This document shows positions 22,078-26,569 of a DNA stretch of 40,719 bases, in pieces (within the stretch, counting starts at the first letter, position 1; every line of letters starts with the position of its first letter). This DNA comes from an uncultured Sphingosinicella sp. (GTDB lineage: Bacteria > Pseudomonadota > Alphaproteobacteria > Sphingomonadales > Sphingomonadaceae): NCBI RefSeq assembly GCF_902806315.1, contig NZ_CADCWD010000082.1, positions 298-41,016 of the forward strand. Direction: 5' to 3'. The position numbers and the translations under genes are program-made. The notes under the pieces were generated by a model, which searched no databases, was not told where the DNA came from, and saw only the letters and a program-made list of their open reading frames with translations.

Positions 22078-23235
22078 TTAGCTCGCGCGCGCTGCGTGGA
22101 AGGCCCAGTCGAGCCAGGGTCCCAAGGCAACGATATCGTCCGTTTCGACGGTGGCTCCGCACCAGATACGAAGGCCTGGCGGCGCGTCGCGGTAGCTCGC
22201 CACGTCGAAGGCGGCGCCTTCGGCCTCGAGCAAAGTCGCCATCCGCTCGACCAACGTGGTGCGCGCTTCATCGTCAAGCGTCGGCACGGCCGCATCGGCG
22301 AATTTGAGGCAGACGCTCGTCGTGCTGCGAGTCGCGGGGTCGGCGGCGAGATGCTCGATCCAGGGCGTCGCCTGCACCCATTCATCAAGCGCCGCCGCAT
22401 TGGCTTCGGAGCGAGTGATGAGCGCCGGCAAGCCGCCGAGGCCCTGCGCCCATTCAAGCGCGTAGATGTAATCCTCTACCGCGAACATGGACGGGGTGTT
22501 GATCGTCTCGCCGTGGAAGATACCCTCGATCAGCTTGCCGCCTTTCGTCATGCGGAAGATCTTGGGCAGCGGCCAGGGTGGCAGATAGGTTTCCAGCCGC
22601 TCGACGGCACGGGGGCTGAGGATCAGCATGCCGTGTCCCCCTTCTCCGCCAAGCACTTTTTGCCAGCTGAAGGTGGTCACATCGAGCTTGTCCCAGGGCA
22701 GCTCCATCGCAAAGGCCGCTGAAGTGGCGTCGCAGACGGTGAGCCCCTCCCGAGCGTCGCTGATCCAGCCGCCGTTCGGCACGCGAACGCCCGAAGTGGT
22801 GCCGTTCCAGGTGAAGACCACGTCCGTCGCGGGGTCGATCGCCGCCAGATCCGGCAGTTCGCCGTACGAGGCTTTCACCACCGCGGCATCGAGTTTCAGC
22901 TGCTTGATCACATCGGTGACCCAGCCCTCGCCGAAGCTCTCCCAGGCGAGCATCGTCACCGGGCGTGCGCCCAGCATCGACCACAGCGCCATTTCCACGG
23001 CGCCGGTGTCGGACCCAGGGACGATGCCTATGCGATGGGTGGGGGGGAGGCGGAGCAGCTTGCGGGTCAGCTCGAGCGCATGGACGAGCCGCGCCTTGCC
23101 GAGCTTGGATCGGTGCGAGCGGCCGAGTGAGCCATGCGGAAGATGTTCGGGGCCCCAGCCCGGCGGCTTTGCGCAGGGGCCGGAGGAAAAATGCGGACGC
23201 AACGGCTTGTTGGACGGCCGCGGGTGGTCAGTCAT
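22078..23235 (-). CDS. serC: Phosphoserine aminotransferase, alphaproteobacterial type
   Basis: The 385-residue protein starts [27 protein letters not shown]. It has the PLP lysine in [15 protein letters not shown] at about 192-206, and [18 protein letters not shown] near 75. It converts 3-phosphohydroxypyruvate and glutamate to phosphoserine. ATG at 23235 is supported by GGAAGGAG (minus strand 23250-23243); residues upstream in the frame are the leader, not protein. The leader folds into two hairpins resembling the serC RNA motif. serA follows after ten bases. Confidence 0.95.
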
Positions 23236-23325
23236 GTCGTCTCTCCTTCCAGAGAGCAGCGCCGCGTTGGGGCGGCGTGGCCCGCCGACGGTCTTAAAGA
23301 CGTCGGCGGGCCCGTCAATCAAAGA
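23236..23325 (-). promoter_or_regulatory. serC leader with two hairpins, serC-motif-like
   Basis: Two stems precede serC. Hairpin 1 has perfect 12-bp arms: GGCCCGCCGACG at 23312-23301 and CGTCGGCGGGCC at 23290-23279, read on the coding strand, around a 10-base loop. Hairpin 2 has arms CGCCGC and GCGGCG (23277-23272 and 23265-23260) and ends about ten bases before the ribosome-binding site. The serC RNA motif is described upstream of serC-serA in alphaproteobacteria; the match is inferred from position and two-hairpin layout. Hairpin 1 could also end the PepSY transcript, though no T-tract follows. Confidence 0.55.
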
Positions 23326-25959: not shown

Positions 25960-25986
25960 TTATCCCCATGATCCTACTTATCCACA
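25960..25986 (+). promoter_or_regulatory. Two DnaA-box-like 9-mers
   Basis: TTATCCCCA at 25960-25968 and TTATCCACA at 25978-25986 lie in the same orientation, 18 bases start to start. The second is the consensus DnaA box and the first differs by one base. They sit between a divergent small gene and the candidate RNA. Two boxes with no AT-rich unwinding region do not make an origin; a DnaA-responsive promoter is possible. Confidence 0.6.
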
Positions 25987-26088
25987 GGCGGATTGTGTTT
26001 GCCCGACTCGGCCGGAGGTGACACTTTCATCTCGTGGCCGGGAGCGGCCCGAACGGAAACGGACGGAAGGCTCAAGGACATCGCCACA

Positions 26089-26124
26089 GCGGAAGCGGCG
26101 GAGGCTCGAAAGAGCGGAAGCGGC
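26089..26124 (+). repeat. Direct repeat pair in the candidate RNA
   Basis: GCGGAAGCGGC occurs at 26089-26099 and again at 26114-26124, on either side of the GCTC/GAGC hairpin. The copies are identical. They may form equivalent unpaired or protein-binding segments. Confidence 0.5.
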
Positions 26125-26420
26125 AAGGCAGTGGTGGGGCGATCGGAGGAAGAAGCGTGAGGCAAAGGCGCAAGCCAATGCCGCTCCCACTTTCCAACGA
26201 AGTCCGGCAATATTCCAGGGATTCGCCTGGGATTGCGCGAAAGAGGATCTGCCGGATAGCGATATCAGGGAGGTTCTCGATGGGGATCCGGCGAGGCAGA
26301 AATGCTTCGATCGGGCGACCCGAGAGGGAGAGAGAGGCGGCCGCGAGGCCAAACTTCGAAACCTCTCCGCCTGGCGAAACGCCGCCGCACTTCGGTGCTG
26401 TGGTTGGAGCTAAGGAAAGT

Positions 26421-26446
26421 GGGGGCTGGCGGAAACGCCGGCCCCC
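26421..26446 (+). terminator. Strong GAAA-capped hairpin, possible terminator
   Basis: GGGGGC, T, GGCG (26421-26431) pairs with CGCC, G, GCCCCC (26436-26446) around a GAAA loop, giving 11 pairs with one G-U. The following bases (ATTACGTTT) are only partly T-rich, so it may be a terminal RNA stem rather than a classical terminator. Confidence 0.5.
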
Positions 26447-26569
26447 ATTACGTTTGCGGCCCGCCGACGTCACAGCGAACGGACAGTTCGGCGCACGAGG
26501 CGAACGCCTGGACTCGCGCGGCATTTGCGCGGCTTGACCCCATGACTCAGTGCAAAGCAATCTCGGCCC

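What the first reader, a model, noticed from the sequence alone, without database searches (positions are those of the whole stretch)
25990..26450. Possible new structured RNA in the largest gene-free stretch
At least seven short perfect stems occur in about 420 bases, three capped by stable tetraloops (GAAA, GCGA, TTCG), plus a longer bulged stem joining 26248-26257 with 26286-26300. A GAAA-capped 11-pair hairpin closes the region, and an 11-base word is repeated on both sides of one stem. Open frames show weak third-position G/C bias. Conserved cores of RNase P, tmRNA and SRP RNA were not found. A shared fold of this size is unusual for plain spacer DNA.
Basis: partly seen in the sequence, partly recalled or inferred. 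Interest (0 to 1): 0.75.

Follow-up and report, generated by a model that had tools for sequence, protein, structure and literature searches.

The report
New structured RNA with cell-cycle-like promoter
The gene-free stretch holds one copy of an apparently uncatalogued, highly folded RNA gene found in many sphingomonad bacteria, and its start region looks like a switch tied to DNA replication, though no transcript has yet been measured.

Summary
Confirmed and extended. The stretch is one copy of an RNA gene family: 40 copies in 25 of 26 genomes of the genus, matches in 62 of 249 of the family. Rfam has no match. Compensatory changes support the fold: 40 of 109 pairs change on both sides among 7 relatives; shuffles give 19, slid controls 8-15. 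Loops show the strand: 92 of 215 hairpins on + carry GNRA or UUCG, against 6 of 216 on -. Frame-breaking indels argue strongly against a protein. Units run from a conserved 5' block to a GNRA-capped 3' hairpin. The 5' block (25960-26027) has three DnaA-box-like 9-mers, a GANTC (CcrM/GcrA-type) site and an extended -10. It resembles sequences before dnaB, dnaG, gapR and dinB in other Alphaproteobacteria, but was absent before gapR and dnaG in its own genus. Best reading: a free-standing, probably replication-timed non-coding RNA, about 26034-26455; target unknown, protein scaffold is my guess.

The parts
25960..25986 (+). three head-to-tail DnaA-box-like 9-mers: TTATCCCCA, TGATCCTAC, TTATCCACA
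   Evidence: Read; third box exactly TTATCCACA in 58 of 66 distinct 5' blocks (the blocks were picked by a fuzzy match to these boxes, so this count is partly circular)
25999..26004 (+). -35-like hexamer TTGCCC, 17 bp before the -10 (weak match)
   Evidence: Read; inference. The simple sigma-70 scan finds no promoter here
26005..26009 (+). GANTC site (GACTC) inside the spacer: CcrM methylation / GcrA-type site
   Evidence: CGANTC present in 66 of 66 blocks, 62 GACTC and 4 GAATC (some loci were found with model R1, which covers these columns)
26019..26027 (+). extended -10-like TGACACTTT
   Evidence: TGNNANNNT 8-10 nt after GANTC in 56 of 66 blocks
26034..26455 (+). predicted RNA, about 420 nt (start inferred from the -10; end from the hairpin and its tail)
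   Evidence: neither end is measured
26034..26081 (+). 5' helix GUGGCCGGGAGC with GCUCAAGGACAU, holding a GNRA hairpin
   Evidence: 4 of 11 pairs with a double-sided change (helix 2)
26104..26115 (+). hairpin GCUC-GAAA-GAGC
   Evidence: 3 of 4 pairs with a double-sided change, 100% paired (helix 6)
26148..26194 (+). domain GGAAGAAGCGUGAGGC..GCCGCUCCCACUUUC with GGC-GCAA-GCC on top
   Evidence: helices 8 and 9 (few changes, so mostly untested by covariation)
26207..26238 (+). long hairpin
   Evidence: 8 of 11 pairs with a double-sided change (helix 10)
26243..26278 (+). helix 26243-26252/26269-26278 enclosing hairpin 26255-26258/26263-26266 (GCGA loop)
   Evidence: hairpin 100% paired, 3 of 4 pairs with a double-sided change
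26292..26309 (+). hairpin CGAGGCA-GAAA-UGCUUCG
   Evidence: 1 of 7 pairs with a double-sided change
26322..26367 (+). helix GAGAGG/CCUCUC holding a GGCC-GCGA-GGCC hairpin
   Evidence: helices 15 and 16
26387..26398 (+). hairpin with UUCG loop
   Evidence: 3 of 5 pairs with a double-sided change (helix 17; this part of the alignment has gaps)
26418..26455 (+). 3' hairpin with GNRA loop and AUUACGUUU tail, possible intrinsic terminator
   Evidence: a strict T-run terminator scan does not call it

Best explanation
A free-standing non-coding RNA gene. Its promoter block binds DnaA upstream, and GcrA with sigma-70 RNA polymerase at a methylated GANTC between -35 and -10, so transcription follows chromosome replication. 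Transcription ends at a GNRA-capped hairpin, releasing a roughly 420-nt RNA of many GNRA/UUCG hairpins that acts in trans. Shown by comparison: the multi-copy family, the conserved ends, the covarying fold, the transcribed strand, the lack of a conserved frame. Inferred: promoter activity, DnaA and GcrA binding, cell-cycle timing, termination at the hairpin. Guessed: that the RNA works as a protein-binding scaffold or sponge, because its shape is kept while its sequence and length drift fast.
For: Copies in 25 of 26 genus genomes. In 100 loci of the named collection, 89 of 102 5' blocks have the 3' hairpin downstream on the same strand; 11 of the 13 misses have 710 bases or less of DNA left. 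Covariation. Tetraloop strand asymmetry. No conserved frame. CGANTC in 66 of 66 blocks with the N varying. gcrA and a CcrM-type RAMA domain in the same genome. Outside the order the same block precedes dnaG, dnaB, gapR and dinB genes and lies near hemE. In Caulobacter, cell-cycle TSSs with GANTC between -10 and -35 are activated at 40-60 minutes (PMC4287350, passage seen). Neighbour genes vary.
Against: No transcript data. No canonical sigma-70 hexamers and no strict T-run terminator at this copy. In the genus, 0 of 26 gapR and 0 of 26 dnaG upstream regions carry the block, so it is not a general replication-gene promoter there. The out-of-order gene cases were noticed after the fact, and other loci read (L093, L198, and two Firmicutes loci L077, L102) showed no such gene that I could name. 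In 4 of 12 clusters the reverse strand folds as well as or better than the + strand in the column-shuffle test, and in one cluster 2 of 30 shuffles match the + strand. The window copy itself has long stop-free frames (up to 143 codons), though they are not kept in relatives. Model R1, used to find part of the copies, covers the GANTC columns.
Confidence: 0.62

Rival explanations
1. A base-pairing regulatory RNA like CcnA or EcpR1, in which a few unpaired stretches bind mRNAs of cell-cycle regulators and the rest is packaging.
For: CcnA of Caulobacter is a 182-nt cell-cycle RNA at oriC reported to bind ctrA and gcrA mRNAs (PMC8959179, abstract, outline and passages seen); EcpR1 modulates the rhizobial cell cycle (PMC4414408, start of abstract in a listing).
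Against: The body diverges fast: the three G000 copies are 40-53% identical in the body but 77-81% in the first 70 bases, and the words enriched across 50 bodies are mostly hairpin-loop words. Targets were not searched.
Confidence: 0.2
2. A DNA-level DnaA site (datA- or DARS-like titration element, recalled names); the RNA is a by-product.
For: Three DnaA-box-like 9-mers at the 5' end; some weak model hits are box-only and look origin-like (by eye).
Against: GANTC, -10, 3' hairpin and covarying RNA helices are conserved as well.
Confidence: 0.08
3. A cis-acting leader of the downstream gene (here extensin-like, start 26570).
For: Same strand, about 115 bases upstream of it.
Against: No downstream gene family recurs in more than a few of the 178 positions examined (top clusters printed, simple ORF calling), and a terminator-like hairpin closes the units.
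Confidence: 0.05
4. A small mobile or repeat element spread by transposition.
For: Several copies per genome with conserved ends.
Against: The three copies in the window's genome are divergent; the two ends do not look like inverted repeats of each other (by eye); some subclades share neighbour genes.
Confidence: 0.03

Closest known systems
CcnA (Caulobacter cell-cycle ncRNA)
   Same: alphaproteobacterial ncRNA tied by its control region to cell-cycle regulators, with DnaA boxes (PMC8959179, passages)
   Different: CcnA is 182 nt, lies at oriC and is presumably CtrA-activated; here the unit (promoter included) is 357-1407 bases, lies more than 100 kb from hemE in 20 of 20 genomes checked, is often in two copies in this genus and has a DnaA-box/GANTC block
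OLE, GOLLD and ROOL large ornate RNAs
   Same: long intergenic RNA rich in stable hairpins, without a coding frame (features of these RNAs partly recalled)
   Different: no Rfam match here (that these families are in Rfam is recalled); other host groups; body length and sequence vary strongly and the most conserved parts are the two ends
GcrA/CcrM-dependent promoters
   Same: GANTC between -35 and -10 of a sigma-70-type promoter
   Different: here attached to an RNA gene and to a DnaA-box triplet; GcrA dependence not tested
EcpR1 (rhizobial trans-sRNA)
   Same: alphaproteobacterial RNA linked to the cell cycle (PMC4414408, start of abstract)
   Different: not compared in sequence

Membership tests
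any Rfam 15 family | score above a family's gathering cut-off | tested here: not met
   window; 20 other loci; the only hit is a tRNA in L043 outside the unit; permissive scan of the window copy: best E 0.39, far under the gathering score
structured non-coding RNA | helices kept by compensatory change | tested here: met
   40 of 109 pairs, 0 of 500 shuffles reach it
structured non-coding RNA | no conserved reading frame | tested here: met
   59 of 65 indel runs in 6 relatives are not multiples of 3
structured non-coding RNA | discrete transcript | not testable with these tools
   no expression data held
GcrA/CcrM-controlled promoter | GANTC in the promoter | tested here: met
   66 of 66 blocks
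GcrA/CcrM-controlled promoter | gcrA and ccrM in the genome | tested here: met
   GcrA; RAMA domain, taken as a CcrM proxy
GcrA/CcrM-controlled promoter | expression depends on GcrA and methylation | not testable with these tools
   needs experiment
DnaA-controlled promoter | DnaA boxes that bind DnaA | tested here: inconclusive
   exact TTATCCACA in 58 of 66 blocks (partly circular); binding untested
CcnA | location at oriC | tested here: not met
   0.10-2.5 Mb from hemE in 20 of 20 genomes, one copy per genome, linear contig distance; oriC lies close to hemE in most Sphingomonadaceae per PMC4741004 (passage)
intrinsic terminator | GC-rich hairpin followed by a T run | tested here: inconclusive
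   hairpin conserved and covarying in 25 sequences but the tail ATTACGTTT fails a strict scan

The most novel reading that the evidence does not exclude
A replication-gated RNA class: DnaA and the GcrA/CcrM methylation clock both read one promoter to release, once per cycle, a large structured RNA whose shape rather than sequence is selected, acting as a scaffold or counter in the sphingomonad cell cycle.
Probability: 0.3. Interest if true: 0.88.

Novelty: new variant of a known kind. Interest (0 to 1): 0.72.

Why it matters
Large structured bacterial RNAs of unknown function are few, and few ncRNAs are wired to the bacterial cell cycle. This family is spread through a common bacterial order, has sharp predicted gene ends and predicts its own regulators, so its expression, timing and need can be tested directly.

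Tried and rejected
A long-range switch pairing CCCACTTTCC (26186-26195) with GGAAAGTGGG (26414-26423): rejected because L011 and L140 appear to keep the local helix through compensatory change but lose this pairing (read by eye from the alignments). Protein-coding origin: not supported. tmRNA, RNase P, SRP or riboswitch identity: no Rfam match. Shared promoter with gapR and dnaG inside the genus: negative, 0 of 26 regions each (the gapR set is 26 loci from 25 genomes). Conserved synteny: weak; extensin-like and/or LOG genes lie near the element in 8 other loci of those compared, some of which are the same genome under different ids, and no neighbour is general. Position near oriC: 16 of 20 genomes have the one copy I took within 0.72 Mb of hemE, not corrected for kinship or contig circularity, so only a hint. 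RNAalifold found no pairs in the 5' block alignment A1; A1 also contains the first 45 or so bases of the RNA, so this says little. Papers: searches and look-ups gave no description of this RNA in what I saw; only openly licensed papers are held.

Full report
What was checked. The stretch 25990-26450 lies between a beta-lactamase-family gene and a small ORF (both - strand) and an extensin-like gene (+ strand, 26570). Rfam 15 has no match over it at the gathering score; a permissive scan gives only two weak sub-threshold matches, best E 0.39. The + strand folds better than 100 shuffles (z -4.9); the - strand is less unusual (z -2.5, 1 of 100 shuffles as good). Of four ORFs tested over the stretch none has a Pfam match.

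It is one copy of a family. A DNA search of the 26 genomes of the genus, the window's own included, found matches in 21. A sequence model of the 5' block (R1, 117 positions, built from 26 genus copies) found 40 copies in 25 of the 26: three in the window's genome, two in 13 genomes, one in 11, none in G025. In the family sample R1 matches 62 of 249 genomes, 24 of 96 genera. Of 16 weak hits that I read, about half were more divergent members with a recognisable 3' hairpin or body; the others were box-only, so at least four of the 62 genomes (G080, G123, G131, G184) are doubtful, while fast filters lose other copies. In the order sample, which overlaps the family one, 23 of 147 match. In the class sample 5 of 289 match, the window's own genome among them; the other four are not clear members. 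Matching contig lengths suggest that Sphingosinicella sp. CPCC 101087 and Sphingomonas parva belong to the window's genus.

Anatomy. Units run from a 5' block to a 3' hairpin, 357-1407 bases from the first box to the hairpin's end in 89 copies. In 100 of the 119 loci, 89 of 102 5' blocks have the 3' hairpin downstream on the same strand; 11 of the 13 misses have 710 bases or less of DNA left, L130 has a hairpin that the model missed, and L123 stays unexplained. Away from those hairpins and their mirror images I count eight other model hits in 763 kb. In the genus, 25 of 26 aligned copies share the hairpin; L028 has an odd one and was left out of the model. The hairpin has 14 pairs, five with double-sided changes in 25 sequences, and a GNRA loop; distant copies change both arms together (by eye), and a few have a UUCG loop (by eye).

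The 5' block. It holds three 9-mers like DnaA boxes, then CGANTC, then an extended -10 pattern 8-10 bases on. Among 66 distinct blocks, 62 have CGACTC and 4 CGAATC, so what is kept is GANTC; 34 have two or more GANTC; 58 have an exact TTATCCACA; 56 have the -10 pattern. Background GANTC density is 2.3 per kb in these loci. Outside the order the same block precedes dnaG (L091), dnaB (L196), gapR (L195, L197) and dinB (seven loci with the same downstream start by eye, four of them listed as Microvirga; L073 tested) and lies upstream of hemE (L108). These cases were noticed after the fact; L093, L198 and the Firmicutes loci L077 and L102 gave no replication gene that I could name, and L089 is cut short. 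Against a general rule: 0 of 26 gapR and 0 of 26 dnaG upstream regions in the genus carry it, and a strict consensus scan finds neither a sigma-70 promoter nor a T-run terminator at this copy.

The RNA. Seven window-class sequences, the window's included, give 109 consensus pairs, 40 with a double-sided change. Shuffled partners give 19.1 such pairs and no shuffle of 500 reaches the observed value on any of five measures; sliding the partners gives 8-15. The structure was derived from the same alignment, which favours it in these controls. Without the promoter and the 3' hairpin the alignment folds at z = -12.4 against column shuffles on the + strand and -5.0 on the reverse. Over 12 clusters the + strand ranges from -2.1 to -12.4 and is the more negative in 8, equal in 1 and less negative in 3. 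In 50 diverse bodies, perfect four-pair hairpins with four-base loops carry GNRA or UUCG in 61 + 31 of 215 cases on + and 3 + 3 of 216 on -; shuffles give 6.3 + 0.9 of 114. This points to the + strand as the RNA. Of 65 indel runs against six relatives, 59 are not multiples of three, so no frame is kept, although single copies have stop-free frames up to about 140 codons.

Evolution. The three copies in the window's genome share 77-81% of the first 70 bases but only 40-53% of the body. By body similarity 146 units (some the same copy under two ids) fall into 19 clusters and 27 singletons. Neighbour genes vary, with some sharing inside subclades. This fits an old trans-acting gene whose ends are fixed and whose body keeps shape more than sequence.

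How it may work. In Caulobacter, cell-cycle TSSs with GANTC between -10 and -35 are activated at 40-60 minutes (PMC4287350, passage), and GcrA recruits RNA polymerase to methylated promoters (PMC7403470, passage). The window's genome has gcrA and a RAMA-domain methyltransferase candidate. I therefore read the block as a replication-linked promoter (about 0.65), the gene as a real structured ncRNA (about 0.95), and the action as protein binding (about 0.4). None of the expression steps is shown.

Novelty. No Rfam family matched, and nothing I saw in the paper searches named under Tried and rejected describes it. Works like: large orphan RNAs (OLE, GOLLD, ROOL) in build, CcnA in wiring. It is filed as a member of none of them: no Rfam match, and not at oriC as CcnA is.

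Noticed in passing
window 23236-23287 (- strand): serC leader motif (RF00517, 57.3 bits) within the 5' part of the long - strand ORF 22078-23322, which looks like phosphoserine aminotransferase (by eye).
   Followed up: no
L183 (IMG/VR contig, 13 kb), element at about 1739: A copy lies on a contig with portal, head-tail adaptor and GTA-gp10-like tail tube genes: a gene transfer agent or prophage neighbourhood, in a contig filed as viral.
   Followed up: partly
L049, L055, L090, L118: Two diverged copies of the RNA unit in tandem, about 440 bases apart.
   Followed up: no
G018:C1:1041851(+) and 1044652(-); G011:C1:2071924(+) and 2075752(-): Two copies facing each other about 2.8 and 3.8 kb apart in single genomes.
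   Followed up: no
L204, L207, L208 (box-only hits): DnaA-box-like cluster with AT-rich DNA upstream of a fumarate hydratase gene (L204 by Pfam; the other two by eye): an origin-like layout distinct from hemE.
   Followed up: no
L009, L010: Longer bodies repeat a GGUCAAACC-type hairpin several times (by eye), suggesting growth by hairpin duplication.
   Followed up: no
L109, L129, L071, L178, L223, L225, L227, L234: LOG-family and/or extensin-like genes, neighbours of the window copy, recur near other copies.
   Followed up: partly
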